A DNA stretch of 64,000 bases, from assembly GCF_002575655.3 (NCBI RefSeq), contig NC_053038.3:148320885-148384884 (forward strand), read 5' to 3'. Within the stretch, counting starts at the first letter, position 1. Each line of letters begins with the position of its first letter. The notes beneath the pieces are model-generated. The model was not told the DNA's origin and did not search any database. It was given only the letters and a program-made list of their open reading frames with translations. The position numbers and the translations under genes were made by a program. Shown here piece after piece: positions 23,729-57,088 of the stretch. Source of the stretch: Aegilops tauschii subsp. strangulata (Eukaryota; Streptophyta; Magnoliopsida; Poales; Poaceae).

Positions 23729-23739
23729 TATATATACAT

Positions 23740-23783
23740 CTGGGCTATTCTGTTACGCGTAACAGAATATTATTCTGTTACCC
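23740..23783 (+). repeat. Left terminal inverted repeat of MEGA
   Basis: It starts CTGGGCTATTCTGTTAC. Positions 23746-23769 are a perfect palindrome (TATTCTGTTACG plus its reverse complement), followed by TATTCTGTTACCC. The differences from the right repeat are five single bases. Confidence 0.9.
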
Positions 23784-24545
23784 TACTTGAACTGACGTAG
23801 TTTACAGGTTGGACTGACGTGGTTGAACTGATCTTCCTGCGTGTACGACGGGCAGAAACAGGGGATGCAATGTGGAGCTTCCGGGCGTTCTCCGGCGCGG
23901 TGCTGCAGGCCATTCGTTGCCAGATGAGACGTGTAAGGGGTTCCGCACGTGCGCGCGCTCACCTGGTCGTGTTTTGTGATCTAGAGTCACCGAAGGTGAC
24001 GGCGTGGTCATTTGGCGGCAGACGTGTTTTGGGCGTTGGTGTTTACCGTGGTGTTCGTAGGCCTCATTTTACGTCTGGTTTGTTGTTTTGGATGTGAGAA
24101 TTATCGATATGTTAGAGTTTTCGGAGATTAATTTCATCTGTAATTTCCGATTACAAGTTTTGGTGTTCTTGGTCGTTTTCCACGCCCGCCATGCAAATGT
24201 TTTCTTCTTTTTCTGTTGTTTTACTTTCGAATTGGCGTTGCAGGGAGAGATATGAGGATTGTATGAAAATATTTGTGTTGTCAACTTTGCTTCTTTGAGT
24301 TGTTTCTACCCCGGATTCCCATGTTATTTTGTCGTTGGTGGAGGTGGTGTATGGCGGCTGACTGGAGCCTGCGATTTCTTGTAATCTGGTCAAACTGTGT
24401 AATTAAGTTGCATGTTTTTTCATGTTTTTTGAATTGTTGTTGTATGTGTACTTGGACTGCTCCGTGTCAAAGTTGTCTTACTGTGCGTTGACATCGGAGT
24501 AAGTATTTTTCTACTTGCTGCCTACCGATACCTCTGCACTTTGAG
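23784..24545. other. Left subterminal region of MEGA
   Basis: No gene seen. It contains several copies of the recurring GAACTGA / GGACTGACG motif close to the end (23790-23832). Confidence 0.5.
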
Positions 24546-24552
24546 TATAAAG
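24546..24552 (+). promoter_or_regulatory. TATA box of the Arg-rich ORF
   Basis: TATAAAG lies 53 bases before the ATG at 24605, with a CA-rich leader between them. This spacing suits a plant RNA polymerase II core promoter with a short 5' leader. Confidence 0.6.
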
Positions 24553-24604
24553 CCCGAGCCCTCTATCACTTTCATTCTACCAACTGCAAGCAAAGAAAAG
24601 CAAG

Positions 24605-24937
24605 ATGGATCCTGTGCTGGGAGAGGTCACAGAGGAGGAGGGGGATGCCGTCGACGTGAGGGCTGCAGTAGCGGAGGAGAGGAGGTGGAGGAGGAGGCGC
24701 AGGCGCAGGCAGATGGCACGACGTGCTGCCGAGGAGGAACTGGAGGTAGAGTTCAACAGACGCCTTGCGCGTGAGGTGATGGATACTTGCAACTCCAATG
24801 AAATGGAGCTTCCTTTTCCAGAGGGCAGGGGAAGGAACCATATTCGGATCATTAGTTGGGCTAGGGCGAGAGCAGCCACAGCTCCACATCCATCCACCAG
24901 GGCCAAATGGCGTCGTTTCTTTGATCGTTATGACTGA
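24605..24937 (+). CDS. Arginine-rich 110-residue protein, function unknown
   Basis: Single-exon ORF with a good TATA box and leader. An acidic start (residues 1-25) is followed by a long basic run (RRWRRRRRRRQMARRAAEEE, about 26-46) that looks like a nuclear-localisation or nucleic-acid-binding segment in a charged helix. The C-terminus (RAKWRRFFDRYD) is also basic. I recognise no family. It is the first gene inside the left end of MEGA, on the same strand as the B3 gene 0.4 kb further on. It has no internal stop, unlike most of the element's other genes. It could be a DNA-binding accessory protein or simply a short chance ORF behind a fortuitous TATA box. Confidence 0.5.
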   Translation: MDPVLGEVTEEEGDAVDVRAAVAEERRWRRRRRRRQMARRAAEEELEVEFNRRLAREVMDTCNSNEMELPFPEGRGRNHIRIISWARARAATAPHPSTRAKWRRFFDRYD

Positions 24938-25195
24938 AGTAGTGAATATTATGTTTTTAAGATTTGTGTTGTGAGGGAGCAGATGTTTGAATGACTAAAT
25001 GAATTCAACTGTTTTACCTCTGAATGTGTTGTTTTATCTACATATGTTTGACATGTGCACTTTTGAACTACTTGTTTATCTGAAGTTGAACTGATTTGCG
25101 GTCAAATGTTGCATGGCTTGCATAATAACTATTTCCTACCAGTTGGCTGCCCACCTGCCTATTTATTATTTTTATAATCTGCGAGTCTCCCTGGC

Positions 25196-25202
25196 TATAA
25201 AT
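25196..25202 (+). promoter_or_regulatory. TATA box of the B3 gene
   Basis: CTATAAATT begins about 130 bases before the ATG at 25325, followed by a pyrimidine-rich leader (CTCCCCCTCC, CTTCTTCC) typical of plant 5' leaders. Confidence 0.6.
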
Positions 25203-25324
25203 TCTATCCATCTATGTGTGGTGTGTGGCTCAGTCTCCCCCTCCTTTTTCTTCCTTCTTCCATAATTAGATCTAGGTTCCTCCCTCTTTTCTCCATTGTT
25301 TTCTTCCCCGTTCCTGTGTGTTCC

Positions 25325-26162
25325 ATGGAGGATTGTTCATGCGGATGCCTGGCAAAGATGGCGCGCATAGCTGATGGCTGTGTGTACGAATCTGGTTTGG
25401 AGCTCACCCAGACTCAGCGCCGTGGACAACTTTCTTCTCTGCTGTACAGCAACCATGGGTTTCGTGCACCCTATGTTTGTCGCCTGACGGTTGGTGACTT
25501 GAAGGAATCATGGGTATGTGTTTCCATTCGTTTTGTTTTCTACTTTTTTGTAGGTCTCTTTTTGAATCCCATGGACTGAATCTGTAGTTTAGTTTTATCA
25601 ATAGTTTGTCTATATTTTTATTTGGTTTTGTCAGAATTTAACAGTAGGGATTTCTGTGTGTATTTGTTCATTACGTAACAGTATTTTATCCATTTTTGTA
25701 TAATCCTTGATCTGTTTTTTGTCAGATGTTTTTACTGTAGGTGTATTGATATGTATATTTCTTCAGTTTAGTCAGTTCACATGACTAGTTAGTTTGGTGT
25801 TATTGTTTTGGTTCAGATTTTTTCTTTTCAGTTTGTTATGCAAACCGTTCCTATATCTATGTAAAAATTCAGTTATGTCAGGTGTTCACTTTGTTTTGTA
25901 CTCCCATGCCCATTTGCAGAAAATGCCACCCAGGATCAGGATTGTTGCTCCTAGTTCCGGCGTACTGAAGATGGAGACTTCAGAGAAAAATGGGTATCAG
26001 TTGATGGAAGCTGGCTACCACATCGACTTTGATGGTTGCATCAACCTAACTACTGGGTGGAAGGAGTTTGTGGCAGAGTCTGGATTTGAGGATGGTGATG
26101 TGGTTATGGTTATGTTCTCCAGGGAAGATGACTCCCTGACGTTCAGAATTTATGTGCTGTAG
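25325..26162 (+). CDS. B3 DNA-binding-domain protein, two exons, intact
   Basis: Exon 1 is 25325-25513 (63 codons), ending TGG before GTATGTG; exon 2 is 25920-26162, after TTTGCAG. The frame is kept (phase 0), giving 143 residues. The start is Cys-rich (MEDCSCGC). From about residue 52 the sequence has B3-domain features: YVCRLTVGDL, then the strand set ending INLTTGWKEFVAESGFEDGDVVMVMFS and LTFRIYVL. GW..F followed by GD is the usual B3 core. B3 domains bind DNA in plant transcription factors. Here the gene lies alone within MEGA, next to the Arg-rich ORF. It has no stop or frameshift although the transposase gene is wrecked. It may be a captured host gene or a bona fide accessory protein. 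Confidence 0.78.
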
Positions 26163-26990
26163 GTTTAAATGTGGCAAATGACGCCGGTTGTGAGATTTGT
26201 GTGTGTTTGATTATGTTGCAGTATTTTTTCTTTAAAACATTTGCATGTGTAATGGTTGAATTCTATGGTGTTATCAGATGGTTTGGAACAATTTATGTAA
26301 TGCTTTCCTATTGTTTTTCTCAAGCATAACTTTTTTATATATATTCTTTATATTTGAACTGGAACAATTATAGTTGAACTGATGGGCATCCTTTGTTTTG
26401 ACTGTGATAATTTCATGTACACGGCTCGCAAACGGAACTATACGCTGATGATATTTGTAGGACCCCTTTTTGTTTTTGAGTTTGCTGAACTTACATGTTG
26501 TTAATGATAGTACTGAACTATTTAGGTTGTCAATGAGCAATCAAATTTGTTTGTTGTATAGCATTTTTTCTATCTTTTTTAAATGAATTTTAGAGCACAA
26601 TTTATCATTTTTCCAGTTGAATAATGATAGTTCTAGTATTTTTTAAAATAACAAGAATTTAATATTTTTGCTGCACAGTGCTAATTTTACTTGAACCTTA
26701 TGAATTGTAGTAGTTGAACTTTTTATAAATTTGTTTCTGAAATTTTTATTACAATCTTCTACGTTTAATTTTTCAAAAAAATATATAATTTTTTTAGCTC
26801 TTAAAATTAACATGTGTTTGAACTTTTTACATTACTTGTTTTGAACTGATTTCTTGTGAGGTTTTTTTTAAAATTATCTACATTTGTTTTTTTTATTTTG
26901 GTCGTGGGTGATCGGCTGGAATTTTGTAATGGGGCGAACTAGTGTCTTGGGCCATCTGCCTGAGCCGTTGTTTTCGGCCCAGATAGCTCA
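26163..26990. other. AT-rich spacer in MEGA
   Basis: No gene. Stops in all frames, with many copies of the TTGAACTGAT / TTGAACTTTTT type motif (for example 26357, 26373 and 26840). Confidence 0.5.
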
Positions 26991-27034
26991 TCCGCGCGGC
27001 TGTGCAGTGCGGCGTGCGCTTGTGCTGTGGGTTT

Positions 27035-27077
27035 AGTCCCGCCTCGCTAGTCGAGGGGGCTCTGGACCTGTTTATAA
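27035..27077 (+). promoter_or_regulatory. U6-type promoter, cassette 1 (USE + TATA)
   Basis: AGTCCCGCCTCG (27035-27046) matches the plant snRNA upstream sequence element RTCCCACATCG with changes, and TTTATAA starts at 27071, 24 bases further on. This short USE-to-TATA distance is the known plant RNA polymerase III form (U6, U3); the polymerase II form is about ten bases longer. Confidence 0.75.
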
Positions 27078-27100
27078 GCGCAACCGAGGCTCACTGGTCG

Positions 27101-27277
27101 AACTCCTCTTAATACTTACCTAAGCGCTTATACACGGCGCTCGCTCTCTCTCATGACCTGTGGGCCCTGGTCGGCGGGCCCTGCGTTGTGCGATTACTAG
27201 GGATTCGCCGACGGGCCCGAGTTCAAGTATCTAGCAGCGTCAGGGCCTGCGCCTGACCTTGGGCGGTCAATTTTTTT
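27101..27277 (+). ncRNA. Predicted polymerase III transcript, cassette 1, ~170 nt
   Basis: The start is placed about 30 bases after the TATA start, as in U6 genes, and the end at the T7 run 27271-27277. It contains AATACTTACCTAAGCGC near the start, then a GC-rich stem region with AGCGC/GCGCT and GGGCCC/GGGCCC arms. It is about 90% identical to 38481-38658. The RNA is not U6, U3, U5 or the plant telomerase RNA as I know them. Confidence 0.5.
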
Positions 27278-27423
27278 GTTTGTTTGAATCTAGTCCTTGA
27301 CTACACCAGTAACTTGGACTGATTATTTTTTTGTTCTGGTTCTTGTCAGTTTTGTGTAAGTGTAATCTATAATATTTTTGATTCTTAGCATTCTTTCTTT
27401 CTAGTTATTATTATTTTTTTGCG

Positions 27424-28975
27424 CTGACACATCCTCCTTGTATCGACTTGCCCCCATTATCTATCTTAGGGGTGTGTGGGTGCGCGTGTGTGGGGGGGGA
27501 CAGAATAACCGCACTGCGCCTGTCAAACGAGCGCACTGCCGCGTTAGCGCAAGGCCGAGCCGGGGGGAGCGGGGGTCGGGACCCCCCTCCCCCATCCCGG
27601 CGAGGCCGAGCTAGGAACGAGCCGTAGCAGCAGACGACGCGGCGTGCCGCGGCGTCGCATGCGGAGGCGAGTCCGTCACATGACTTGCCCCCGCACCGCA
27701 CCGCACTGAGGGGCATAGTTGTACTGACACATCTTTCTTGTATGGACTTGCCCCCATTATCTATCTTTAGGGGTGTGTGGGTGCGTGTGGGGGGAGGGGA
27801 AATAGAATAACCGCACTGCGCCTGTCAAACGAGCGCACTGCCGCGTTAGCGCGAGGCCGAGCCGGGGGGAGGAGGGTCGAGACCCCCCTCCCCCATCCCG
27901 GTGAGGCCGAGCCAGGAACGAGCCGTAGCAGGCGACGACGCAGCGTGCCACGACGTCGCATGCTGAGGCGAGTCCGTAACATGACTTGCCCCCGCACGGC
28001 ACCGCACCACACCGAGGGGCATAGTTGTACTGACAATTCTTTCTTGTATGGACTTGCCCCCATTATCTATCTTTAGGGGTGTGTGGGTGCGTGTGGGGGG
28101 AAACAGAATAACCGCAATGCGCCTGTCAAACGAGCGCACTGCCACGTTAGCGCGAGGCCGAGTCGGGGGAGGGGGGGAGGGACCCCCCCTCCCCCATCCC
28201 GGCGAGGCCGAGCCAGGAACGAGCCGTAGCAGGCGACGACGCAGCTTGCCGCGGCGTCGCATGCGGAGGCGAGTCCGTAACATGACTTTCCCCCGCACCG
28301 CACTGCACCGAGGGGCATAGTTGTACTGAGACATCTTCCTTGTATGGACTTGCCCCCATTATCTATCTTTAGGGGTGTGCGGGTGCGTGTGGGGGGGGGG
28401 GGAAACAGAATAACCGCACTGCGCCTGTCAAACGAGCGCACTGCCGCGTTAGCGCGAGGCCGAGCCGGGGGGGATGGGGGTCAGGACCCCCTCGCCCATC
28501 CCGGCGAGGCCGAGCCAGGAACGAGCTGTAGCAGGCGACGACGCGGTGTGCCGCGGCGTCGCATGCGGAGGCGAGTCCGTAACATGACTTGCCCCTGCAT
28601 CGCACCGCACCGCACCGAGGGGCATAGTTGTACTGACACATCTTCCTTGTATGGACTTGCCCCCATTATCTATCTTTAGGGGTGTGTGGGTGCGTGTGTG
28701 GGGGGAGGACAGAATAACCGCACTGCGCCTGTCAAACGAGCGCACTGCCGCGTTAGCGCGAGGCCGAGCCGGGGGGAGGGGGGTCCCCCCTCCCCCATCC
28801 CGGCGAGGCCGAGCTAGGAACGAGCCGTAGCAGGCGACAACGCAGCATGCCGCGGCGTCGCATGCGGAGGCGAGTCCATAACATGACTTGCCCCCGCACC
28901 GCATCGCACTGAGAGGTGTGCGGAGGCGAGTCCGTAACATGACTTGCCCCCATTATCTTATCTTTTTTTAGGGGA
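27424..28975. repeat. Five-copy ~300-bp CpG-rich tandem array
   Basis: Units start with CTGACACATC or a variant at 27424, 27724, 28030, 28326 and 28633, giving periods of 300, 306, 296 and 307 bp; a shortened end piece follows to 28975. Each unit has GACTTGCCCCCATTATCTAT, CAGAATAACCGCACTGCGCC, a G run of variable length, and GCGTCGCATGCGGAGGCGAG. Length differences come mostly from the G/C runs. Long ORFs in several frames are by-products of the missing stops in GC-rich DNA. Confidence 0.93.
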
Positions 28976-29096
28976 AAAACCAGCACCGTTATGAATTATT
29001 ATTTCATTTGTACTTTTTTGATAATTTTTATTGTACTGTTGTGAGTTATTATTTGTACTTTAGCCGTTTGTTTTCTACCTCTATATTAATTTTTTA

Positions 29097-29649
29097 TTGT
29101 ATTTAATTTTTGCTATTATCTTTGGTAACTGCCCAGAGATTGTGGGCTTGGCCACGATTGTGGGCTTTAGCCATCGGTTTTCTCCCACTCACCTTTTAAC
29201 CTCCTCTCTCCCCCGTTCCGCTCCGCTCCCCTCCCCAAATCGATTCCTTCTTTGTTCCCCTCTTCTTCTCTTCTCGCAGAGAAGTTGCTTCTCCTGTTTC
29301 ACCGCGGGAGCGTCGGCCGGCGGGTTGAACCCTAGGTTTGGAGGTTTGGGTGCTCTGTTTGCTCATTTTGCTCTGCCGTCGATTTCCCTTGCATCCTCTT
29401 ATGTACAGATTTTCCCTCTATTACTAAGCTATTGCTCTCTTGCTGTCTCAGGCTGGATTCGCTAGGGTTCCTTTGCTCTTGAACGAGCGGTTGGCGACAG
29501 TGATACTGGATTCCGTGGAGGATTTTGTGTTTGCTGGTAAGAGTTTTGCTTTGTATGGCGTGCTTCATTTCCTAAATAGGTCAGAGCCCTAATTTTTGTT
29601 CATGTGTCTTGTAGATCTGGTTGGGCAGATTTTAGGTGTGTAGATCTCA
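29097..29649 (+). other. 5' leader region of the Ulp1-like gene
   Basis: Pyrimidine-rich leader (CCTCTCTCCCCC, TTCTTCTCTTCTC around 29200-29275), then CTAGG(G)TT-type sequence and probable 5'-leader introns before the ATG at 29650. No coding domain seen. Confidence 0.4.
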
Positions 29650-32600
29650 ATGGGTACATCATCCAGTCCGGACAAGTTGAATGTAGGTGATTTTCCCTGT
29701 AATTTGGATGATGTTTTAACAGATCTTGTTTTTAGGTTGTATAGGTGTTGTCGTATTGACTTTATAAGTTGTATGTATTTTGATAGCTGTTAATTTTGCC
29801 CTGGAATGTGTGGTGTGTATAGTTTTGGCAGTTGATGTGACCTACAGACAGGTTGTAGTACTGATCACCATCTGTAGTTTGAACTGCTGTCCTGGCATTT
29901 GAAATACGGTGTCGTAGTCAGTGAAGAACTATTATGATGTTGAAAGAGTTGTCATTCTGAAGTTTGTTGTGCCAGTGGGGGGTTGATATTGTTTTATTGG
30001 GTGCACTTGTGGTGTTCTTATAGTTGAACTGATTGCTTGTTCGTGTAGTTTTTTGCTAATTATGATGTTGTTGCAGATGTTGGAGTGCCGGTGCCTCCTG
30101 ATTCTAACAAATCAGAACGCTTTCAAGATCTTGTGAATGTTATTTTTGAGACACCAAACCCTCTAGAAGAACTTGCGAATGTTGCTGGTGTTTCCCTTAT
30201 ATTTGCTCTTTTTTTATCAGCCTTGAATACATAAATATGATTAGCTACATGAGTTGTTCCTTTTCTTTGTGTCTTATAGTATGCGCTTTATTTATCTTGT
30301 CTCTGCAATGTTAATTTTGTTTTAATTTTATATGTGCGTGCTTATGTTATTGGTTTATGCAGTTAATGACAGCCATGGTGCTCCTGAGGACATTTCTGAT
30401 GTTGTCAAAGATATTAATGATGGAATGTATTCTCTTAACGTTGATGATGGTGATGGCAGCTTGCAGGTGTCTGTTACTCAGTCACAGAGTGTTGATGGCA
30501 CTGAGCCTGTTACTCATGATGATGGTGATGGCAGCTTGCAGGTGTCTGCAAACTCATTTGACGCAAGTGTTTACTCATGATGAAGCCCCAAGTCAAGTGG
30601 GGCGCCCCCCCACCCTAGGGTTTCCAACCCTAGGCGCAGGGGGAGGCCCATGGGGGGTGCCCTAGCCCACTATGGGCTGGTTCCCTTCCCACTTCAGCCC
30701 ATGGGGCCCTCCGGGACAGGTGGCCCTACCCGGTGGACCCTGGGACCCTTCCGGTGGTCCCCATACAATACCGATAACCCCCGAAACTTTCCCGGTGGCC
30801 GAAACTGGACTTCCTATATATAATTCTTCACCTCCGGACCATTTCGGAACTCCTCGTGACGTCCGGGATCTCATCCGGGACTCCGAACAACTTTCTGGTT
30901 TCCGCATACTCATATCTCTACAACCCTAGCGTCACCGAACCTTAAGTGTGTAGACCCTACGGGTTCGGGAGACATGCAGACATGACCGAGACGCCTCTCC
31001 GGTCAATAACCAACAGCGGGATCTGGATACCCATGTTGGCTCCCACATGTTCCACGATGATCTCATCGGATGAACAACGATGTCGAGGATTCAATCAATC
31101 CCGTATACAATTCCCTTTGTCAATCGGTATGTTACTTGCCCGAGATTCGATCGTCGGTATCCCAATACCTTGTTCAATCTCCTTACCGGCAAGTCTCTTT
31201 ACTCGTACCGTAATGCATGATCCCGTGACTAACGCCTTAGTCACATTGAGCTCATTATGATGATGCATTACCGAGTGGGCCCAGAGATACCTCTCCGTCA
31301 CACGGAGTGACAAATCCCAGTCTCGATCCGTGCCAACCCAACAGACACTTTCGGAGATACCCGTAGTGCACCTTTATAGTCACCCAGTTACGTTGTGATG
31401 TTTGGCACACCCAAAGCACTCCTACGGTATCCGGGAGTTGCACGATCTCATGGTCTAAGGAAAAGATACTTGACATTGGAAAAGCTCTAGCAAACGAAAC
31501 TACACGATCTTTTATGCTATGCTTAGGATTGGGTCTTGTCCATCACATCATTCTCCTAATGATGTGATCCCGTTATCAACGACATCCAATGTCCATAGTC
31601 AGGAAACCATGACTATCTGTTGATCAACGAGCTAGTCAACTAGAGGCTTACTAGGGACACGTTGTGGTCTATGTATTCACACATGTATTATGATTTCCGG
31701 ATAACACAATTATAGCATAAACAATAGACAATTATCATGAACAAAGAAATATAATAATAACCATTTATTATTGCCTCTAGGGCATATTTCCAACAGTCTT
31801 TTATTTTTTTATTTTTGTAGGTGAGTGGCTGGATCTTGATGAGCATGACTACAGGATCTTTGGGAGCCAGTTCTCGGACCTTGAGCGTGTATCTATTGAT
31901 CTTAGCCAGGGGCATTCTCCAGAAAAGACAAGATCTGGTGTTATTAAGGGGCGGTTGGGAGCTCTGAAAGGTTCTACGGCTGCTTGTGCAGAGAGCCCCT
32001 CTACACCCAAGAATCCCATTCTAGAATTGATAGACAGCGATGATGATGCGTTTGACAAGATTACTGGCATGGGAAGAGTCACCAGGAGCGCTGCTGCCAA
32101 GGGTTTATCCCCACTTGCTGGAATATTGGCCCGTAGAGCTGGTGGTGCTAGGAAGGATCCTGCTTTGGATTCTGGCAATGTTACAAGCACGAAGCGTGCA
32201 CCCAGAGCTCCTATAAAGTTTTGCTCCCCTGTGCAGCAGCTTCACCCTCATAAATTCCCTCACCTAGACAAGGCTCGCAAGTTGTATAATATGTTGCTTA
32301 GCGATGAAGCATGTGAGAAGTATGTCGAGTGAGTATCTCTCATTACGTTTCCTCTTCTTTTCCTCTGTTGTTTGTAACTGCTAGATAAATATGACCTGAA
32401 ATGTTACTTTTTATACAACTTGAACTGCTATGAATGACTTATCTTGCTTCCCCTGCTTTTCGTTCTTGTCTGTGCTGCAGGAATACATTCTCAATGATAC
32501 CTTAGCCCGATGGTAGCGTAACCAGCTTCACTCGGAAACGCATCTGGGAAGTTTTTGCACCTGGGTAAATGATGGAGGGTGATGTAATGGACTTCCTCAT

Positions 32601-38457: not shown

Positions 38458-38480
38458 GCGTAGCCGAGGCTCACTGGTCG

Positions 38481-45602: not shown

Positions 45603-45606
45603 ATGG
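45602..45606. other. Target-site duplication, left copy
   Basis: CATGG here and CATGG at 54968-54972 flank the gypsy element exactly. They lie at the end of a transposase exon, right at its splice donor. Confidence 0.95.
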
Positions 45607-46824: not shown

Positions 46825-49459
46825 ATGGCGCCACGCAAAGTCAAGACTTCCTCAGCACCGGCTTGGTATGAGCCGGCCCTTGAGGCGCCCACCGTCACGG
46901 AGAAAAGCCTCGCCTCCGTGCGCCTGCTGATGGCGGGCGTGAGCAATGAGTGGGGGCGACCGAGCTCCGGCTTGCCTCCGACGTGCCGGAGCCCGAGGGA
47001 AGCACCTTCTTCCCCTTCTTCTCGAGCGCCGTCGCCGTCGGGTTGGTTCCTCCCTTCGCTGATTTCTTTTATGAAGTCCTCGACCACTACGGTCTGCACG
47101 CGTTGCATCTCCATCCCAACTCTGTTCTCCTCCTGTCCATCTTCGCCTACTACTGTGAGGCATACCTGGGCGTGATGCTGTCTGTGGCGTTGCTTCGCCA
47201 TTTCTTCTTCCTTCGTGTCAGCGAGGGTCACATCTCCGGATGCGCTAACTTCGTCGCATGCGGCAAGGCCAACTCGATCTCGAGCACCGGGAAGAGGGCC
47301 GACAACATCCGATCCAAATGGGTCATGATGGATGCCCAGCGTGCCGATCCGCGCCTGGCGTTGCCGACAGAGGCGCCCCGGCTGGGAAAGGGGTGGCCCA
47401 AGGCGGAGCTTGTCGACGAGCGGGCATCGTCAGTGTTGGGGCAGATGATGACCGACCTGAAGCCGGGCAACGCGAGGGCGGCCAAGATAACGGGGGCGAT
47501 GCTCCTGAGGGAGTTCTTGATGCACTCCAGGCGCGCGCGCCCCCTCTGGGAGCTTGAAGAAGAGGAGAACAAGACCCGCCTGAGGCCAGGGGACCTGCCT
47601 GGCGATGAATTGGACGCCGTCCTGCGCCTCATAGTCGGGGACAACTAGGAGTACCCGCCTAGCGCCTTCGTTCCCCTGTTCCAACGCAGGGACCGGGAGG
47701 AATTCGTCGCCTCCAGGCCGACTTTTGATGCGCGCGGGCTGGTGCCGCCAGCGCTTCCGGGAGCTCCTTCGGCGCAGAAACCGGTGGAGGTGTCTTCTAG
47801 CGAGTCCCGCGGAGAGGGGGGGGGGAGGAGGTGGACTCGGAGAAGACACTGGAAGAGTTGGGGGAGACTTCCCCTCTGAGCAAGGCCGAGATTCTCCGCG
47901 CCCTTCCTGATGATGCCGAGGCCGACGCCTACCAAGGGGGGAGGGAGCAACCCCTCATCCCGACGAAGGGTAGGTCGTCGCTGGTGGCCCGTGGTGCCGC
48001 CTCCACCCTAACACCTCCTGGGGCTAGATCCCGTTCTGCCTCCGCACCGCCTGGCGCCGCCAGAGCCCGAACGCTTGCCCCTCAGGTCCTGATGCTATCA
48101 GGCTTCAAGCTTCCCAAGCGAAAGGTGGAGTATTTCGCGGTGCACCGGTAGGTGCCTTGAGCTTTGCTTTATCCCTGCTGGTACTTGTTATTTCCTGACG
48201 CTCGCCCTTGGTTGATCAGGCCAACATCTTCGGCAAAGAAGAGGAAGGAAGATACGGCGGTCGTGCCCCCCTCCGCGGAGAAAGGAGGCAGCAGTGCCCG
48301 CATCTCCCCAGCCCGGTCGTCCTCGCGGGGCCAAGAGGAACGTCGCCGCGTGGAATCAGCCCCCATGGCCTCGCTGGCTCCGGAGGTGCCGGCGCTTGGC
48401 GTGGCTGACAAGGTCCCAGCTGCTCCAGGGCCCGCGGTCTCCCAAGCCCTGGTGACGATGTCGCTTCCTCCTACTGCTGCACCTCCACTCCCTGGTTCTT
48501 CTGCTCCTGCTGCTGTCTTGGAGCGTGCCCTTTCGGAGATGACCCAGCTGCAGGTGGATCTCCTAAGCGCGGACCCGTGCCTGGTGGCCGGGCGTCTGGA
48601 GTTGGCCTCTGGCTGGCTTCACTCCGACCTGGCGGTTCGCGCGGCGCTGGGCCAGGCTGCTGCGGCTTTCGAGAAGGAGAAGCAAGGAGCCGCCAGCGCT
48701 GCAGCCAATCATGAGACGGCGCTGAAAGACGCCAAGGCCGCCCGTGACCGCTGCCAAGTGCTGGAGGGCGAGTTGCAGAGCCTACGCGACAAGCACGCTG
48801 AAGAGGTACGCTGCCGCCACGCAAAGGAGGTGGAGATGAAGGCCCGGGAGGAAGCCGTCAAGAACCGTGATGCTGAGCTGGCGGAGCTGGGGAAGAAGCA
48901 AGCCGCTGAGCGCAACCGGTTGGAAGAGTTGGAGCGGAAGATAGGGACGAGGGAGGCCGATCTTGATGCCAAGGCGCGAGTCCTGGATGAAGACCGCGTG
49001 GCCTTCGCCGATCTCGAGAAGAGATCTCGCAAGGCGCTGAAGACGCTTTACGAGCACGGCCTGGAGAAGCCTCTGGACACCGACGAGGACGGCCCCGCCC
49101 AGCTGCTTCCTCTCGTGGTGAAGGTGCTTGAGGAGGTCGTTGATGGCCTCGGTCCCATGGCGGAGGCAGAAGCTCACGTCTTGTCTTCAGCCGCACTGAC
49201 TCGCGTCTTCAGCCAACTGCACCTCCGCGACCCCAACGCTCACCTTGACGAGCTGCTGGAGCCTGTGGCTGAAGATCACTGCGAAGCCGCCGCCGCAGCT
49301 GTACAAGGTCAACTGGAGGCCTTGCTGGGGAGGTTCCGCGGCTTTGTCTCCGATCCTCTGTCTGACGACGCCGCGGATCCTGCGGCTGGTGGTGAAGGTG
49401 AGAACATCATTGCCCATGGGGGAGCACCTTCCGCAGGCGATGGCGATATCCAGGGGTGA
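46825..49459 (+). pseudogene. Antisense ORF of the Tat-like element (gypsy-type transposon domain plus coiled coil)
   Basis: The start is MAPRKVKTSSAPAW at 46825. A +1 shift near 46950 moves to the frame with GSTFFPFFSSAVAVGLVPPFADFFYEVLDHYGLHALHLHPN (46950-47648), which I recognise as the putative gypsy-type transposon (Transposase_28-like) domain. A TAG at 47646 and further shifts follow; 47831-48151 is a Pro/Ser-rich linker, then a probable intron to about 48220. The last part (to 49459) is a long Glu/Ala/Arg-rich coiled coil (HAEEVRCRHAKEVEMKAREE). Similar proteins are widespread in grasses. The strand opposite to gag and the domain order fit the known antisense ORFs of Tat elements; their role is unknown. 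Confidence 0.7.
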
Positions 49460-49602
49460 CCTGCGGCTATTCTTCCCGTTTCGTTCCTGCAAGATATATC
49501 AGGCCTCGTGGAGGCGTTTAGACTTTTCATTTGGTATTGTGAGAACAATATGCTTGTAATATTTGATTCGAGATTTTGCGTTTTCCTTCCTATTTGCTTT
49601 GT

Positions 49603-49930
49603 TCTACATCGGCAGAGCCCGGCCCCGCGCATACCTCAACCGCCATTGGGCCGACCGGAGACCAGGACGGTCCAAGGAGTGAGGGGCTACATGACCAGTT
49701 AGGCTCCTGAGTCGCGATGCTCAGGAGTCCCCCTTGACGCACAAACATCATATAGGGAGAGTTCGTGAGGATAGATTAATGTTCTACGTCGGCAGAGCCC
49801 GGCCCCGCGCATACCTCAACCGCCATTGGGCCGACCGGAAACCAGGACGGACCAAGGAGTGAGGGGCTACGTGACCAGTTAGGCTCCTGAGTCACGATGC
49901 TCAGGAGTTCCCCTTGACGTGCAAACAATT
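49603..49930. repeat. Two ~179-bp direct repeats in the Tat-like element
   Basis: TTCTAC(A/G)TCGGCAGAGCCCG starts at 49603 and again at 49782, with nearly identical 145-bp bodies ending GATGCTCAGGAGT. A degenerate third copy lies at about 50460-50590. Confidence 0.88.
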
Positions 49931-51496
49931 TCCATACCTGCCCTCGCCGAGGCCTCGGGAGGGGCGCGCGACGCCCAGGTCCGGGGGACCTGGTTGGGTG
50001 GCGTGCGCTTGGGCGTGACCCGAGCGCAGCCCCCGTGCCCAGCCCCCTCGTGCGACTCTCCCGAGGGAAAGCATCGTGGTGAGGCTGGGCGCTGAGCTAT
50101 GGGCTCCCTAAGGTTGGTGCGACCGTGGGGCCGCCCTCAGTTGTTTATCACCAGCGCGGAGCATAGTGCTTCTGCTTGTGCACGGGCATAGCCGCTCCTC
50201 GGCAGTGTCGACAGCCAGCGCAGAGCATGCTGCTTCCACTTGGGCGTGGGATGAGGGGCCCCTCCGGGAGGAGCCCTCGGGGCGTGTACAGCCCCGCCCT
50301 GACACGTGGCTTGCACGGCAGGGCTACGAGGTGTATCTGGGCACTCGTGAGCCAGCGCGGGACTCACGAGGCCCTACCTCAAGGCGGGTTGCACCTGGTC
50401 TTGAGTCTTGGTGACCTGTATGTCCCTGCAAGGCGGTGAGATGCAAGCACTCTACGTCCTCAGGTCCCGGCCCTCGAGCGAGCTCAGCCGCCGCTGGTAT
50501 GCCAGGTCACGATGCCGTGGTCAAGGCCAGGGGGTGAGGGCTAGAGAGCCAGTAAGAGCTCCTGAGTCGCGATGCTCAGGAGCCCCCCTTTTAACGTGCA
50601 AGCGAATTGCATAGGATGAAAAGACCCGTGGCGGGCGGCAATCGAGCGGGCGATAGCCGTTGGCAGGCTAAGCATGGATAGCAGATCAACTTGGATAAAT
50701 GCAGGAAGATACATGCCACTGGGTCCGGCTCGAGCGGCTTGGGGATGATGCAGCCCGAGGGGCGCCCCCAGCAAGGTAAGCTAAAGACATAAGCAAAAGG
50801 GATACATGCCACAGGGACGGACCCATGTGGCCAGGGAATAATGCAGCCCGAGGGGCGCTCCCAGCTTAAACAAGCTCGGAAGATGTCACCTGGTTCTGTA
50901 GACGAAGTAGAGTTGGTGCAGCTGAAGGCGTGCGTTGAAGAAACGACTCCTTATGAGCCACCGGGACCCTGAGCCTCAGGAGGCTCTGGGGGCTCGGGAG
51001 GTTCCCTGAAGACCGTCTCCATCTCCTCTAGGACGGCGTGGTACCTGACCTCCTGAGCCGCCAGGACACGCCGCAGGTCGCGTTGGTAGGCTGACGCCAC
51101 GCTCGGCAAGCCGAAGGACATGCGAACGTAGCTGTGTGGTGGGCCCTCGCAGCGGCCCACACACGATGGCCAGAAGCGCTACTGAGATGCGGCCCCGTTG
51201 AGCCCGGGGACGTCGATGCAGACACGCAGCCCAGCATCCTCGCCAGGATGCGGAGCTGCGCCTCGTGAGCGGCTGTCGCCGCGCATGGCCCTTGCATCTT
51301 GCAGTTCCTGAGTGGTCTTGGTGATGAACTCCTGAGTGGTGGGAACTCCTTGCCCTGTGCTCTCCTGAGGGTCACGTTCCGCGAAGCACGCCTCCAAGTG
51401 GTGCCCAAGCGCCTCCCTCGTGAGGTTGGCAAGGTCTGAGGCCCTCCAAAAGAGAGCCCCCGAGCCCGGCCTAAGGAGGGCGCCGGGCACGCCTTC
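49931..51496 (-). other. Region where reverse transcriptase and integrase are missing
   Basis: I find no RT (no F/YxDD), RNase H or integrase motif on either strand. Short minus-strand frames (50951-51160 with SYVRMSFGLPSVASAYQRDL; 51179-51490) look like decayed internal sequence of unknown origin. Confidence 0.5.
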
Positions 51497-52249
51497 CTAT
51501 GCGATGGAGGGAGGCACCCCTGGAGCGGGCGCTGATCCTGACGAGGCTCCTGCCGCGACGCCATCCTCCTGAGGTCCTGCACGGCGCGGCTGCTTCTTCT
51601 TGGGGATGGCCTCCGGAGGGCCTTCATTTCTGCTGTCGGGGTCGTCGATTGCTGCGGCTTGAAAGGTGCACTCGAGGGAGCACACCGCATCCCTCTCTTC
51701 ACACGGGACCATGATGATTCCTCCGCTTCCTGGCATCTTGAGAACGTTGTAGCCGTGATGAGTGACTGCCATGAACTTGGCCAGGGCTGGATACCCGAGG
51801 ATGGCATTGTACGGCAGGCAGATGTGTGCGACGTCGAAGTCGATGAGCTCGGTGCAGTAGTTCTTGCGCTCCCCGAAGTTGACAGGCAAGCGGACCTGCC
51901 CTATCGGTGTGGTGGAACCGTCGGTCACTCCTGAGAAAGGCTTGGTGGGCTGGAGCTGTTCATATGGCACTTGGAGGTTGTCGAACATGTCGACGGACAG
52001 GACGTTGAGCCCTGTGCCGCCGTCGATGAGGGTCTTTTTGACCTGCACATTGCTGATGACTGGGGAGCACAGCATAAGGAGGGCGCCAGCGGTGGCTGCG
52101 CACTTGAGCTGTTCCGCCAAGTTGAAACTGATGGCGCATTGGGACCACTTGAGCGGGCGCGTGGCCTCGAGCTTGGGGAGCACCGCGTTCACCTCGCGAG
52201 CGAACTGTTTGAAGATGCGCTGAGAGGCTGGGGCTTGGGCGCCGCCCAA
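51497..52249 (-). CDS. Retropepsin region of the Tat-like element
   Basis: 251 codons without a stop. The protease core is seen in VKKTLIDGGTGLNVLSVDMF, where the active-site triplet reads DGG rather than the usual DTG or DSG, and in AILGYPALAKFMAV. Upstream is a segment typical of the gag-protease joint (KWSQCAISFNLAEQL). A basic, Pro-rich tail ends the frame. DGG-type triplets occur in some plant gypsy relatives, so activity cannot be judged. It is in a different frame from gag. With no RT downstream it could only act on gag. Confidence 0.75.
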   Translation of the reverse strand: MGGAQAPASQRIFKQFAREVNAVLPKLEATRPLKWSQCAISFNLAEQLKCAATAGALLMLCSPVISNVQVKKTLIDGGTGLNVLSVDMFDNLQVPYEQLQPTKPFSGVTDGSTTPIGQVRLPVNFGERKNYCTELIDFDVAHICLPYNAILGYPALAKFMAVTHHGYNVLKMPGSGGIIMVPCEERDAVCSLECTFQAAAIDDPDSRNEGPPEAIPKKKQPRRAGPQEDGVAAGASSGSAPAPGVPPSIA

Positions 52250-52587
52250 GATGCAGGCGATCGCACACAGCTCCTGGAAGCCCCCAGCCCCCTCGTCCTG
52301 ATGGTGGTCGTCGTTCCTTCTTGGTGGCGGCAGCGGGGGAAGACCGGTGTTGCCCTGGGGGCGATCCTCACGAGGCGGGTCCCTCCAGGCGCCCTTGCGA
52401 GGTTGGTCCTGCCAGCGGTCCTCACGAGGCCAGTCGCGCCACTCCTGGCGCGGGCCACGGTCGTCCCGGCATCCGCCTCCTCGTCCTCCTCCGCGGCCGT
52501 AGCCCCGGTCGTTGCGCTCGGGGCGTCGACCGTAGCGTCCTTCCCGTATGGCTCTGAGCTCTTGACAGTCGCTGGTGTTGTGGGTGT

Positions 52588-53960
52588 TCAGGTTGTGGAA
52601 GGCGTAGAACAGTCGGCCGTTCTTGGATGACTCGGGTGATCTCTGCCCGCCTTGGTGTCGGGCTCCGCTGCGAGCACATCTACCTCCTTGTGTTTCACGT
52701 CCTTGGCCTTCTTCTCCTCCGCGCCCATGGCTGGCAGCTCAAGGAGAGAGAGGCGCCCCTCCTCAGCTCTTGCGCACTTGGTCGCCAGGTTGAACAACTC
52801 CTGAGAGGTGCAGAGCTCCTCGTGGATGGCGAGCTCTTCCTTCATCTTGATGTCACGGACGCCGTCGGAAAACGCGGAGATGATGGCCTCGTCCGTGACC
52901 TTGGGGATCTCGAGGCGGGTGTTGTTGAAGCGCTGGATGTACTTCTGGAGGGTCTCTCCTGGTTGTTGCTTGATGCGGCGCAGATCACCCGCGGCCGGTG
53001 GGCGGTTGCGAGTGCCCTGGAAGTTGGCGACGAAGTGGTCGTGCATCTCGTCCCAGGAGGAGATCGAGCCGTGCTGCAGGTTCAGGAGCCAGGAGCGAGC
53101 TCCATCCTTGAGAGACATGGGAAACCAGTTCGCCATGACTTTTTCGTCACTGTTGGCTGCTTCGATGCTCAGCTCATAGAGCTGCAGGAACTCCGCGGTG
53201 TCGGCGGTGCCGTCGTAGCGAGGAGGTAGATCCGGCTTGAACTTGCCTGGCCAGGCGACGCTATGCAGCTCGGGGTGAAGGCGCGGCAGCCGGCCGTGGT
53301 TGCCGGGGCCTGCTTCGGAGGTGGAGCTTGGTCTTGACGAGGTCCACGCTGCGCCGCTGCGGGCGGTGCGCGGTCTTGACGAGGTGGCGCAGGGAGCGCA
53401 GGTGCAGCTTCTCGCGGCCGCGGGATTTCTTGGCAGCTTCTCTCTTCGCGTGCGGGCGCCGGGCGCGGCGGATCACACCGCGGAGCCGCGCGCCTTGGTG
53501 CCAAGGCACCGTCTTGGGGCTGAGGTGGTGGAGGCACGCCATGAGCTCTGTCGCCCGCGGCTGGTTGAGGGGGAGGCAGAGAGTGGGACGGCGCCGGAGA
53601 GCCCCCTGCGGCGCGGATGAGCTCGGCAACGCAGTCGAGCCACTCCTCGTAGAGGTCGTCGACGGGGCGGTAGCACAGGGGCTCGTTCGCCGCGAGGAGC
53701 GCGGCCCGTGCCTCCATGGGAGCGCGGTGCGCGTGAGACGAAGAACCGGCAGGGGTCAGTGATGGAGTAGCGGTGCGGCCGTCCTGCCACACCGAAGGAT
53801 GCAGCGAGGACGCCTGCTGCTCGTTCCCTGCCGGGTCGGTGCCAGCGTTGGCGGCGGGAGACGGAGAACGACGAGGTGGCCCGCCAACGGGAGCCGTCTG
53901 AGCGACGCGGGCGGTGAGGGCAGCCCGACGCTTAGCTCGAGCACGACGAGCGTCCGCCAT
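52588..53960 (-). pseudogene. gag of the Tat-like element
   Basis: The start ATG is 53958-53960 (MADARRARAKRRAALT). A long Pro/Ala/Arg-rich part is followed by the retrotransposon gag domain, WFPMSLKDGARSWLLNLQ through FNNTRLEIPKVTDEAIISAF (52700-53136). A frameshift near 53270-53340 separates the two. The domain's frame is open upstream to about 53260, so a single shift explains the break. The C-terminal end (to 52588) is charged. The CCHC knuckle usual in gag is not seen. Confidence 0.8.
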
Positions 53961-54033
53961 GGAGACGATGGAGCGACGGAGCGACGAACTGATGGAAGGG
54001 AAGCTATGGTGCACCCCTACCTGGTGCACCAAA

Positions 54034-54967
54034 TGTCGGATGTGGGGTTCCGGCAAACCCTTAAGGTTCGAACACTGGGGTGCGCGCGAAGTCTTTCCCT
54101 CCTACCGATCTACGCCCTAGCCCGCTAAGATCTCGCGGACGAACTCGACGAACTCGCAACACAGAAAGACACGAGGTTTATACTGGTTCGGGCCACCGTT
54201 GTGGTGTAATACCCTACTTCAGTGTGGTGGTGGTGGATTGCCTCTTGGGCCGATGGTGAACAGTACAAAGGGAAGAACAGCCTCCTGAGGTTGAGGTGTT
54301 CTTGTGCCTGGCTAACTTGTGTGGGTGAGAGCTGGGTGAATTGCTCGATCGGGTTGGATCAAGCTAAGATGAGATGCCTCTACTATGGTGGCTAGCTCTA
54401 CTTATATAGGCCCTGGTCCTCTTCCCAAATATCGAGCGGGAAGGGAGCCAACAACGGCAGGCAAATTTGAAGGGGGGCAGCTAGTACAAGCTATCCTGAC
54501 AAAAGCGGTCTTCGCGTGCGAAAAGCTCTGGTGGTGACGCTGCCTTGGGCTCCACGATGACCGCCGCCTTGCCGTCCTCCTGGTCTTGGTCTCGTTGCAC
54601 CAATATACCAACCTTTGCCTGATGCCTCGGTACTCTTCGCCTGCGCTGGCCTCCTTAGCACCAAAGAGGTAATAAGGACGCTGCACGCGCTGGCGCCCGG
54701 CTGGCGCCCGCCTGGTGTCGTGCGTCATGGCTCACGTCACCAGGGCCTCGTGAGGTTTGCCCCGCCTTGATATCTCCACCCCACGTGAGCCTGCCTGGCT
54801 AGGCTACTCCAGAGGAGGTCTTGTGTCGTCCGCCTCGCGAGGCTTGGACCCTCGCGAGAGTCTTGGATGCCTTGTTGATGAAGATGGGTCGTATGACCTA
54901 CTTTCTTAGCCATGCCGTGGGCCGCAGGCAGGCATGTCTGGGGACCCCCGTTCCCAGAACGCCGACA
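54034..54967 (-). repeat. 5' LTR of the Tat-like element (934 bp)
   Basis: Bounded by TGTCGG and CCGACA and followed by the target copy CATGG (54968-54972). On the minus strand a possible primer-binding site, TTTGGTGCACCAGG, begins directly after the LTR at 54033. Confidence 0.93.
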
Positions 54968-54972
54968 CATGG

Positions 54973-55607
54973 TATGGACTCTGCTTGTATGTTTTTTCTG
55001 AATGGATACTTACATGTGTATAGCTCTGTGTTGCCTCCTATGTTTGCTGTTCACCCTGGTGTATGGGTGCGGGTGGTGTCACCCTTGGCACATGCAGCAA
55101 TGCATCTCTTGGAGGGAGCAATGTTGACGAAGATCTTCGTCTCTCATTGTACGGCCGTCTCCCCTCAGATTTGTTGTGAGGTTGCACCTATCTATATGGC
55201 TCATATCTTGTACTTTGGAACCTGCTAGAGTGGCCAAAATTTCTGTCTCTTTGGCCTGGTCTTCCCGTTGCAACCGCTTTTGCAGCACGGATGGTTGATG
55301 TTGACGGAGCGACTGGTGAAAGCTTGTGTGTCCTTGCCTTTCTGCATGCGCTAGGGAAGGAAAACATTTGTTGTTGGGGAAATTGTTGACCTTGTTGCAA
55401 CCCAGCAGTGGCAAAGCTTGTATTCCCAGATATCGGTGTTTGCTGCATAGAAGAACCTGTCCGTGCTTCTGATGATTCTGGTGTAGCTTGAAATCTGCCT
55501 GTATTGTTGAAGTATCCAGGTGCTATTTCTGGTGTCACCCAATCAGGCGGCGCCCCATGTCTGCTTCGCTCATGAAACTCTCGCTGCGTGTGCCGCCTTG
55601 CATGTTT
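54973..55607 (-). pseudogene. FAR1/MULE-type transposase gene of MEGA, 5' part
   Basis: The exon starts at 55607 after the acceptor TTGCAG and encodes HARRHTQREFHE, then GAPPDWVTPEIAPGYFNNTGRF, a Gln/Ser-rich stretch and a Lys/Arg part. I recognise it as the N-terminal extension of grass FAR1-like MULE transposases. In-frame stops occur near 55188 and 55035. The exon would continue across the target duplication to the donor GTATTG at 45601, so removal of the gypsy element would leave the exon end intact. Further 5' exons must exist but I cannot place them. Confidence 0.65.
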
Positions 55608-56672
55608 CTGCAATGACATTCAAGAGTTTTGGGATTAATCATTTCTGCATTTTCTTGTATACATGCTATGGGTAACATGTCATGCACTGAAGGCAATGTA
55701 CAATTTTAACTTGCATCACTGGGCGTTATTAAAATTTGTTCTCTATTTTGTATCTGGGTTAGTTTTCAGTCGAACTGATGAACATACATGTTCAACACTG
55801 ATGTACTGATTTTTAGCATTGCTTGCAAACTGAACATTGAACTTCAGATATGTATTGATATGCATATATATATATATATATAACTGATGCATGTCTTCTC
55901 TTTTTTTCATCTATAACTTATGCAACTACACTAGAAGTACTCCTAGTTTATGTATCATTGAACTTACTTTATAACAAGTGTATATTTTTTCAACAACATT
56001 CTTTTACTAGTTCGAACTGATGCAACTACACGACATGCACTAGTAGAAACAACATCATACAACTTGCAGTGGTAGCTGAACCTTATATATAAACCTAGTA
56101 GCTACTTGGACTGATGGATAAGTCTAAGTTTTTTGGCTTGAACTGAAGCTAGCATATTAGAGGTACTGACAGTAACCTTGACATCCAAATTGTGCATCAG
56201 TTGGCAGGGGTGTAATGAACTGATCAAGCATTTGCAATGTACTATCATGTTCTTCTTCATAGGAACATGTGTCACTGATGCAGCACACATGTAGTACTGA
56301 TGAATCTGATAGTGTAAGATGTAGGCAGAGCATAGTGTGTGCAATTTTTAAACTGAATCTTCTTCATTGCAGGACTGATGAACTCAACACAAACGTGGTA
56401 TTTTTTCTTCAGGCAACCCCAGACATGAAAAGGTTTTTTGAACTGATTCAATTTTTGAGGAAAAATAGTGTGGGAAGCAGACATCACCTCCAGTGGATTG
56501 TTCTCGGATCTGACTTCTTCTTCTTCCTCTCGTGGGCGGCATAAGGGCATGTTCTTGGGAGGCGGCGCCATTGATGTAGGCAAGGAGCTTGGGGAGACGA
56601 CGTCGCTCCTGCTTGTGGTGGATGTCCAGCGATGAGGTCCGGGGAGGCAGCAGCTGGCGCGGATCACTGGCC
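55608..56672. other. Right subterminal AT-rich region of MEGA
   Basis: No gene seen. Very dense in the ACTGATG motif (for example 55773, 55802, 56014, 56107, 56139, 56217, 56294, 56374 and 56439). 56274-56550 is open in minus frames but without a recognisable domain. It is probably the 5' leader and promoter side of the transposase gene. Confidence 0.5.
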
Positions 56673-56873
56673 CGGCGAAGGAGCCCCGGCGAGGGAGGGA
56701 GGCAGCAAGCGCGGGATCACTGTCCCGGTGAAGGAGACCCGGCGAGGGAGGGAGGCGGCTGGCGCAGATCACGGCTCCGGTGAAGGATCCTGGTGAGGAA
56801 GGGGATGGCGGCGGTGGATCCGTCCCGGCGAAGGATTCCGGCGAGGAAGGGGATGGCGGCGGTGGATCCGTCG
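56673..56873. repeat. Four ~50-bp GC-rich tandem repeats near the right end of MEGA
   Basis: The unit begins CGG(C/T)GAAGGA and contains GGCGAGG(A/G)A and GGATC. Copies start at 56673, 56726, 56778 and 56826. The GC-rich end recalls those of X1 and X2. Confidence 0.85.
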
Positions 56874-57027
56874 TCGGCCAGTCACGGCGCCGCGAGCTCC
56901 CTCGCTCCGGCTGCCGTCGTCGCTCGCTCGCCCGCGACGGCTACCTCCAGCGGAAGAAGGCGGGTTGGGTTCGGGCTGGCTCAGGGGGATTCTACTGTGT
57001 AGGCGCTTCGCGCCTTTATAGGGCCGG

Positions 57028-57071
57028 GGGTAACAGAATATTATTCTGTTACTAGTAAGAGAATAGTCCAG
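57028..57071 (-). repeat. Right terminal inverted repeat of MEGA
   Basis: Read inward it starts CTGGACTATTCTCTTAC and matches the left repeat at 39 of 44 bases, with the same palindrome (one mismatched pair) and TATTCTGTTACCC. CCCTATATATA follows outside. Confidence 0.9.
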
Positions 57072-57088
57072 CCCTATATATATATACG

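What the first reader, a model, noticed from the sequence alone, without database searches (positions are those of the whole stretch)
23740..57071. A 33-kb MULE-like transposon with a FAR1 transposase, Ulp1-like protease, exonucleases, B3 protein and RNA cassettes
The 44-bp inverted repeats match at 39 of 44 bases and bracket all the cargo. MULEs with a Ulp1-like gene are known; I do not know of one that also carries a duplicated WRN-like exonuclease, a B3 gene and polymerase III cassettes. This is the best candidate for an undescribed system in the window.
Basis: partly seen in the sequence, partly recalled or inferred. Interest (0 to 1): 0.88.

Follow-up and report, generated by a model that had tools for sequence, protein, structure and literature searches.

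The report
Giant microsatellite-seeking transposon with accessory genes
The genome of what is most likely goatgrass, a wild wheat relative, holds a family of unusually large jumping-DNA elements (about 25 kilobases or more) whose copies share, besides a transposase gene, a set of extra genes that look like nucleases, proteases and a DNA-binding protein, plus two predicted RNA genes, and that likely insert into short TA repeats; it matters because several of the extra genes appear to be kept by selection rather than picked up by accident.

Summary
Window 23737-57074 is one transposon copy: its ends match at 39 of 44 bases, and the same two ends form 18 correctly oriented pairs 25-111 kb apart in this genome. 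Six further copies read whole and one in part carry the same gene set in the same order, with a gene lost here and there: B3-like gene, two predicted Pol III RNA cassettes, two Ulp1-type genes, two WRN-type exonuclease genes, FAR1/MULE transposase. Corrections: 9.4 kb of the "33 kb" is a nested LTR retrotransposon, and this copy has lost the catalytic part of its main Ulp1 gene. Transposase, exo1, B3 and Ulp1A catalytic exons show constraint; exo2 (catalytic Asp lost) and Ulp1B do not. All eight left ends examined abut microsatellites, and the window element sits in a chain of such elements, as in published "SaTar" MULE arrays. I read it as a satellite-targeting giant MULE with a conserved accessory module. 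My paper searches listed nothing like the set. Roles of the accessory genes and RNA are inferred; no empty site was found, and later genome-wide searches did not complete.

The parts
23737..57074 (.). Whole element between TA tracts (33.3 kb, of which 9.4 kb is a nested retrotransposon)
   Evidence: same ends in six other copies
23740..23783 (+). Left terminal inverted repeat; three 10-bp boxes in direct-inverted-direct order
   Evidence: 39 of 44 match to the right end; boxes seen by eye
57028..57071 (-). Right terminal inverted repeat
24605..26162 (+). B3-like gene (three putative exons)
   Evidence: PF02362 2.3e-5, below cut-off; 7 of 7 copies; ratio 0.53
27036..27277 (+). RNA cassette A: USE-like box 27036, TATA 27071, predicted RNA from about 27100 to the T-run
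   Evidence: block in 7 of 7 copies
27424..29005 (.). Tandem array of about 300-bp units, length differs between element copies
28937..30516 (+). Upstream region and 5' part of the Ulp1A gene (extent inferred); the rest, with the catalytic exons, is missing in this copy
30517..31795 (.). Foreign piece in place of about 5.6 kb of Ulp1A; its end looks like an Angela-type LTR (name recalled)
31796..33712 (+). Ulp1B: second Ulp1-like gene, His/Asp/Cys aligned to Ulp1A
   Evidence: E 5e-5; no Pfam or PDB hit; no constraint detected
35516..36988 (-). exo1: WRN-type 3'-5' exonuclease, two putative exons; one stop in this copy
38416..38658 (+). RNA cassette B: USE-like box 38416, TATA 38451, predicted RNA from about 38480 to the T-run
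   Evidence: block in 7 of 7 copies
39488..41206 (-). exo2: duplicate exonuclease gene with lost catalytic Asp
42343..45500 (-). FAR1-type MULE transposase (FAR1, MULE, SWIM, zinc-knuckle parts; limits approximate)
45607..54967 (.). Nested LTR retrotransposon (not part of the element); LTRs 45607-46529 and 54034-54967, duplication CATGG
55191..55619 (-). Possible N-terminal exon of the transposase, cut off by the nested retrotransposon
   Evidence: ORF begins MSLQK in 4 of 7 copies; exon status inferred
19945..23735 (.). Neighbour element X1 across the left TA tract
57088..58490 (.). Start of neighbour element X2 across the right TA tract

Best explanation
This is one decayed copy of a family of giant Mutator-like (MULE) DNA transposons whose copies share a FAR1-type transposase gene, an accessory set of B3-like, Ulp1-type and WRN-type exonuclease genes and two predicted Pol III RNA cassettes, and that likely insert by cut-and-paste into TA/CA microsatellites. 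Shown: the paired ends, the shared gene set and order in the copies read, the microsatellite flanks, and a deficit of amino-acid change in transposase, exo1, B3 and the Ulp1A catalytic exons. Inferred: the transposase binds the three 10-bp boxes in each end and moves the element; the Ulp1A protease and the B3-like protein would act against silencing, as the Ulp1-bearing VANC proteins of VANDAL MULEs are described to do; the exonuclease would trim or repair ends within the TA tract, where hairpins form; the predicted RNA has no assigned role.
For: Ends: 18 pairs, none in wrong order. Gene set and order: six whole copies plus one partial. MULE, FAR1, C48 and DNA_pol_A_exo1 domains; transposase motifs FDTTY in 7 of 7, DQC in 6 of 7, SESM in 6 of 7 copies, one of these just after a stop (that these form the triad is recalled). 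Changing/silent ratio at sites present in at least 4 copies: transposase 0.52 (p against 1: 1.7e-11), exo1 0.52 (3.5e-4), B3 0.53 (5.1e-4), Ulp1A catalytic 0.32 (4.2e-4); controls exo2 0.95, Ulp1B 0.84, noncoding 0.81. Against the noncoding baseline: p 6e-6, 0.011, 0.004, 0.005. All five exonuclease site residues kept in 9 of 11 aligned sequences. Microsatellite next to 8 of 8 left and, by eye, 16 of 20 right ends, window included. Element X next door in the window and at L003, L008, L013. RNA cassettes: block with TATA and T-run in 14 of 14; cassette B folds at z -2.93.
Against: No target-site duplication can be read in TA tracts and no empty site was found, so cut-and-paste is inferred. The selection test ignores relatedness of copies, and the noncoding baseline is 0.81, not 1. 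Ulp1A catalytic rests on 41 changes in 5 copies; its shared changes alone (5) give p 0.057, and the Ulp1A N-terminal part is not below baseline (p 0.066). The middle transposase exon (0.66-0.72) is not significant by itself. exo1 against exo2 gives dN/dS 0.69 and 1.02 for the two exons. exo2 and Ulp1B show no constraint. B3 scores below Pfam's cut-off. The RNA body is as variable as its flanks (24/169 v 186/1359; 33/168 v 126/738). Stops occur in coding exons (23 in the transposase over seven copies); no intact copy is shown. Only the smallest pairs were read. Anti-silencing and end-trimming roles are analogy.
Confidence: 0.8

Rival explanations
1. Pack-MULE-like passive cargo: an ancestor picked up host gene pieces once and its descendants inherit them without use.
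For: exo2 and Ulp1B show no constraint; exo1 v exo2 dN/dS 0.69 and 1.02; the RNA body is not less variable than its flanks; stops occur in coding exons.
Against: Transposase, exo1, B3 and Ulp1A catalytic exons are below the noncoding baseline; exo1 keeps its first Asp in 6 of 6 copies while the duplicate beside it lost it in 7 of 7; the order of what is present is constant.
Confidence: 0.15
2. Composite: the two repeats belong to different elements and bracket unrelated genes by chance.
For: The ends differ at 5 of 44 bases; no empty site found.
Against: 18 pairs of the same two ends with the right order and strand, zero wrong ones within 150 kb; same contents in the copies read.
Confidence: 0.02
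3. Host gene cluster: a domesticated FAR1-related gene with neighbours, duplicated segmentally.
For: Databases name the relatives FAR1-RELATED SEQUENCE proteins; L025 and L026 look like a segmental duplication.
Against: The six copies read end at the same terminal repeats beside a microsatellite, and ends lie on all seven large contigs.
Confidence: 0.03

Closest known systems
SaTar / AgS-MULE / ArS-MULE elements (guayule, rice; PMC5907723)
   Same: MULE ends, microsatellite flanks, non-nested chains of different elements; the paper also reports microsatellite-placed autonomous MULEs (abstract, sections 13 and 15 and part 1 of 16 read)
   Different: The non-autonomous families tabled are 0.38-1.9 kb; the sections I read mention no exonuclease, B3, Ulp1 or RNA genes
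MuTAnT / AutoMuTAnT (Medicago; PMC4486113)
   Same: MULE with mudrA-like transposase in (TA)n tracts (abstract, Results and Discussion read)
   Different: Putative autonomous copy is 4.9 kb with a single ORF; this family is 25 kb or more with several genes
Ulp1-bearing MULEs: KIU/VANDAL (Arabidopsis), melon, rice, grapevine (PMC13317346, PMC2528002)
   Same: MULE plus Ulp1-type gene (passages seen)
   Different: KIU elements are described as non-TIR; this one has TIRs, a FAR1-type transposase and further genes
Jittery/FAR1-type MULEs
   Same: FAR1 + MULE + SWIM architecture (grapevine passages)
   Different: No accessory gene set known to me (recalled)
WRN-type exonuclease (PDB 2e6l)
   Same: 3'-5' exonuclease match over query residues 77-225, E 0.007
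   Different: Here in a transposon, as a multi-copy Triticeae family
Pol III-transcribed plant telomerase RNA genes (PMC6765143)
   Same: USE, TATA and terminator as the shared parts (passages seen)
   Different: No Rfam match here; different RNA, inside a transposon

Membership tests
MULE | MULE transposase domain | tested here: met
   PF10551 3e-17 in the window; 4.3e-26 in relative P0001
MULE | Terminal inverted repeats shared by copies | tested here: met
   39 of 44; 18 pairs of ends
MULE | 8-11 bp target-site duplication | tested here: inconclusive
   Flanks are TA/CA repeats in which a duplication cannot be told
FAR1/Jittery-type MULE | FAR1 DNA-binding plus SWIM in the transposase | tested here: met
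   PF03101; C-x-C-R-x-x-x-H in 7 of 7 copies (that this marks SWIM is recalled; no Pfam SWIM hit was obtained)
SaTar (satellite-targeted MULE) | Flanked by microsatellites | tested here: met
   8 of 8 left, 16 of 20 right ends by eye; tracts as short as 8 bp
SaTar (satellite-targeted MULE) | Chains of different elements, none interrupting another | tested here: met
   X0, small element, X1, this element, X2 in the window, parted by TA tracts; X next door at L003, L008, L013
SaTar (satellite-targeted MULE) | Unoccupied satellite at orthologous site | not testable with these tools
   No second genome of the species or of wheat is held (no relatives here)
KIU/VANDAL | Ulp1 domain in the element | tested here: met
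   PF02902 6.2e-15 in copy N, exon-joined; catalytic exons in 5 of 7 copies
KIU/VANDAL | No terminal inverted repeats | tested here: not met
   TIRs present
Pack-MULE | No transposase, fragments of host genes | tested here: not met
   Transposase gene in all 7 copies; constraint on accessory genes
Pol III type-3 (U6-like) gene | USE and TATA about 24 bp apart, T-run terminator | tested here: met
   Two in the window, no third; over 14 cassettes TATA and T-run in 14, the box GTCCCACCTCG unchanged in 10; the 24-bp rule and the USE consensus are recalled
Pol III type-3 (U6-like) gene | Transcribed by Pol III | not testable with these tools
   No expression data

The most novel reading that the evidence does not exclude
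A DNA transposon that runs its own multi-part machine: transposase, Ulp1 protease and B3-like protein to escape silencing, a WRN-type exonuclease that lets it enter and mend TA repeats, and a structured Pol III RNA whose unpaired 5' end copies the start of U1 snRNA (AUACUUACCUG, recalled) and could act on 5' splice sites. It would be the first cut-and-paste transposon known to me with its own noncoding RNA gene.
Probability: 0.2. Interest if true: 0.92.

Novelty: new variant of a known kind. Interest (0 to 1): 0.7.

Why it matters
The SaTar paper leaves open what aims such MULEs at microsatellites. A family whose large copies carry a WRN-type exonuclease gene under constraint gives a concrete candidate: a nuclease that may work on TA tracts. 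It also suggests that a plant DNA transposon can keep several accessory genes long enough to leave a selection signature, with one duplicate (exo2) decaying beside its sister. Many Triticeae proteins annotated as FAR1-related or as 3'-5' exonuclease may then be transposon genes, which bears on gene counts in wheat. The RNA cassettes are a direct, cheap test for RNA-seq.

Tried and rejected
Tried: Rfam at gathering and at E up to 1: no RNA family. ARAGORN: no tRNA. B-box pattern scan (21 found, mean 12.8 expected, 3 of 100 shuffles as many) and USE scan alone (7 found, 9 of 100 shuffles as many): little or nothing; the USE + spacer + TATA + T-run combination stands out, but that pattern was drawn after seeing the cassettes. 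Lower variability of the RNA: tested and not found. Pair covariation: 98.0% of cells paired against 97.1% in shuffles (0 of 500 as high), but only 2 pairs with changes on both sides against a mean of 1.0 (69 of 500 as high). Composite of two elements: rejected by the pairing of ends. Pack-MULE: rejected on transposase and constraint. U1 snRNA gene: rejected, no Rfam match. The first exo1 selection count wrongly included copy M, which lacks exo1; corrected (shared sites 0.43 became 0.31). One search shows exo1 coverage 0.46 for M; this is exo2 cross-matching. Ulp1B as a protease: no Pfam or PDB hit, kept only on its match to Ulp1A. Paper searches, judged from titles and starts of abstracts; the two useful MULE papers came; the library lacks most subscription papers.

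Not done: genome-wide counts of each cargo gene, a search for the RNA outside elements, and a search for host parent genes, because the genome search stopped answering.
Full report
Where it is. The window is G000:C4:148320885-148384884 of a 4.1-Gb genome. The length of that contig, 528,822,201, is that of the contig holding P0005, named Aegilops tauschii subsp. strangulata, so the window most likely lies on chromosome 4D of that species (chromosome name recalled).

The element. The terminal repeats match at 39 of 44 bases. In the left end a 10-bp box stands three times in direct-inverted-direct order (ATTCTGTTAC, GTAACAGAAT, ATTCTGTTAC; by eye); the right end has the same plan with changes. 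The left 161 bp gave 41 matches (40 of 401 candidates scored; one is a short second hit) and the right 192 bp gave 40 (40 of 281 scored) in the genome. Of the 40 left ends, 18 pair with one of the 40 right ends on the same strand in the right order at 25,469-111,214 bp; there are no wrong-order pairs within 150 kb and no pair under 25 kb. Twenty-two left ends stay unpaired, in part because most candidates were not scored.

Other copies. All six carry, in the same order and strands, the B3 region, RNA cassette A, the 300-bp tandem array, parts of the Ulp1 genes, RNA cassette B, exo2 and the transposase. By exon coverage over the seven copies, window included: B3 7 of 7, transposase 7 of 7, exo2 7 of 7, exo1 6 of 7 (missing in M), Ulp1A 5 of 7 (missing in the window and in H), Ulp1B 5 of 7 (mostly missing in M and H). 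The partial copy has B3, both cassettes, the start of Ulp1A, part of Ulp1B, exo1, part of exo2 and part of the transposase.

What the window copy lacks and has gained. 45607-54967 is an LTR retrotransposon (LTRs 95% alike; duplication CATGG) that sits between a possible N-terminal exon and the FAR1 exon of the transposase. 30516-31796 replaces about 5.6 kb that holds the catalytic part of Ulp1A in five copies. Without the nested retrotransposon this copy is about 24 kb.

The genes. Transposase: FAR1 and MULE domains and a SWIM-like motif; 117 relatives: best full-length ones 81-85% identical in wheat and Aegilops tauschii (P0001-P0003), 45% in Brachypodium (P0028), 55-56% over about two thirds in Lolium and Festuca (P0023, P0027), 37-38% in Urochloa and Aristida. 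Ulp1A: Peptidase_C48 6.2e-15. Ulp1B: 20% identical to Ulp1A over 122 residues, E 5e-5, with His, Asp and Cys aligned. Exonuclease: 423 relatives, the 120 listed all named from Triticum or Aegilops. The site residues Asp81, Glu83, Asp133, Tyr207 and Asp211 (assigned by eye from the WRN alignment and recall) are all kept in 9 of the 11 aligned; P0197 lacks the first two and the window model has Asn at 133. The window's exo1 also has a stop. In exo2 the first Asp is Gly or His in 7 of 7 copies; in exo1 it is Asp in 6 of 6. B3: weak, below the Pfam cut-off; 20 relatives.

Selection. Polymorphic sites among copies were sorted into silent and changing against the majority codon. Ratios over all sites: transposase 0.52 (166 silent, 332 changing), exo1 0.52, B3 0.53, Ulp1A catalytic 0.32, Ulp1A N-terminal 0.62, Ulp1B 0.84, exo2 0.95, noncoding blocks in six frames 0.81. 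Tested against the noncoding share, p is 6e-6, 0.011, 0.004, 0.005, 0.066, 0.53 and 0.77 in that order. For changes shared by two or more copies the ratios are 0.48, 0.31, 0.34, 0.17 (only 5 changes, p 0.057), 1.19 (5 changes), 0.58 and 1.08. Pairwise dN/dS within exo1 is 0.48 and 0.42 for its two exons, within exo2 1.16 and 0.72, and between exo1 and exo2 0.69 and 1.02 (its within-exo1 set excludes M). The middle transposase exon alone is not significant. Relatedness of copies is not modelled, and mutations after insertion dilute any signal.

RNA cassettes. A 400-bp block occurs twice in each of the seven copies. It holds GTCCCACCTCG (one mismatch to the plant USE, RTCCCACATCG, recalled; unchanged in 10 of 14), 24 bp, TTTATAA, and about 200 bp on a run of T; TTTATAAGC and a run of 5-8 T are in 14 of 14. 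USE, TATA and terminator are the parts reported for Pol III-made plant telomerase RNA (passages of PMC6765143). The combination occurs twice in the window; 60 resampled sequences gave one hit in all (pattern set after the fact). A predicted RNA of 178-180 nt including the T-run, tested for cassette B of the window, folds at z -2.93 (1 of 200 shuffles as good). Pairs hold in 98.0% of cells, with one pair switching U-A to A-U in four sequences. Against function: the RNA body is no less variable than its flanks. The unpaired start reads AUACUUACCUG in 6 of 7 B and 2 of 7 A copies, the start of U1 snRNA as I recall it; this was seen after the fact and may be chance.

Targeting. All eight left ends and 16 of 20 right ends (by eye, the window's own included) abut TA, CA or TG repeats. 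Across the tract lies element X at both sides of the window element and at L003, L008 and L013. X has its own related ends (GGTCTATTCTGCTAATA...), three copies in the window, and a small third element sits between X0 and X1, again between TA tracts. This is the chain architecture described for SaTar MULEs; that paper leaves the targeting mechanism open and offers a circular-intermediate model.

How it would work. The transposase binds the triple boxes and cuts and pastes the element (inferred from family). TA tracts form hairpins; human WRN is needed where they expand (recalled), so a WRN-type exonuclease is a sensible partner for an element living in TA repeats (inferred; WRN's helicase, not its exonuclease, is the part implicated, as I recall). 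Ulp1-bearing VANC proteins act against silencing in Arabidopsis (review passages), which suggests the same for Ulp1A, with the B3-like protein as DNA-binding partner (inferred).

Verdict. The finding is real and larger than stated: a family, not a single copy. It is a new variant of a known kind (satellite-targeted MULE with Ulp1), set apart by size and by the conserved exonuclease, B3-like gene and RNA cassettes. No listing or 127 points to this set; I judged by titles and starts of abstracts except for the papers named above.

Noticed in passing
window 16618-23735 and 57088-58490: Three copies of an element X (TIR GGTCTATTCTGCTAATA) with internal tandem repeats, beside TA tracts; X0 and X1 are separated by a small third element with its own ends (19631-19880).
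   Followed up: partly
L022, right flank: The neighbour holds CTATTCTGATCACGGGATCAGAATAATATTCTGATCAC: same triple-box design with another core, probably a sister family.
   Followed up: no
window 1-11177: Two near-identical stretches (1-1778 and 9463-11177, 94-98%) around a gypsy-type polyprotein frame: probably an LTR retrotransposon.
   Followed up: no
window 62026-62395: Tandem repeat of about 70 bp, 90-93% alike.
   Followed up: no
L025 and L026 (C5, 225.4 and 225.6 Mb): Two right ends 199 kb apart, cut at the same base and with the same start of flank and the same X match: probably a segmental duplication.
   Followed up: no
window 27424-29005: The 300-bp tandem array varies in length among the seven element copies read (longest in copy N); role unknown.
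   Followed up: partly
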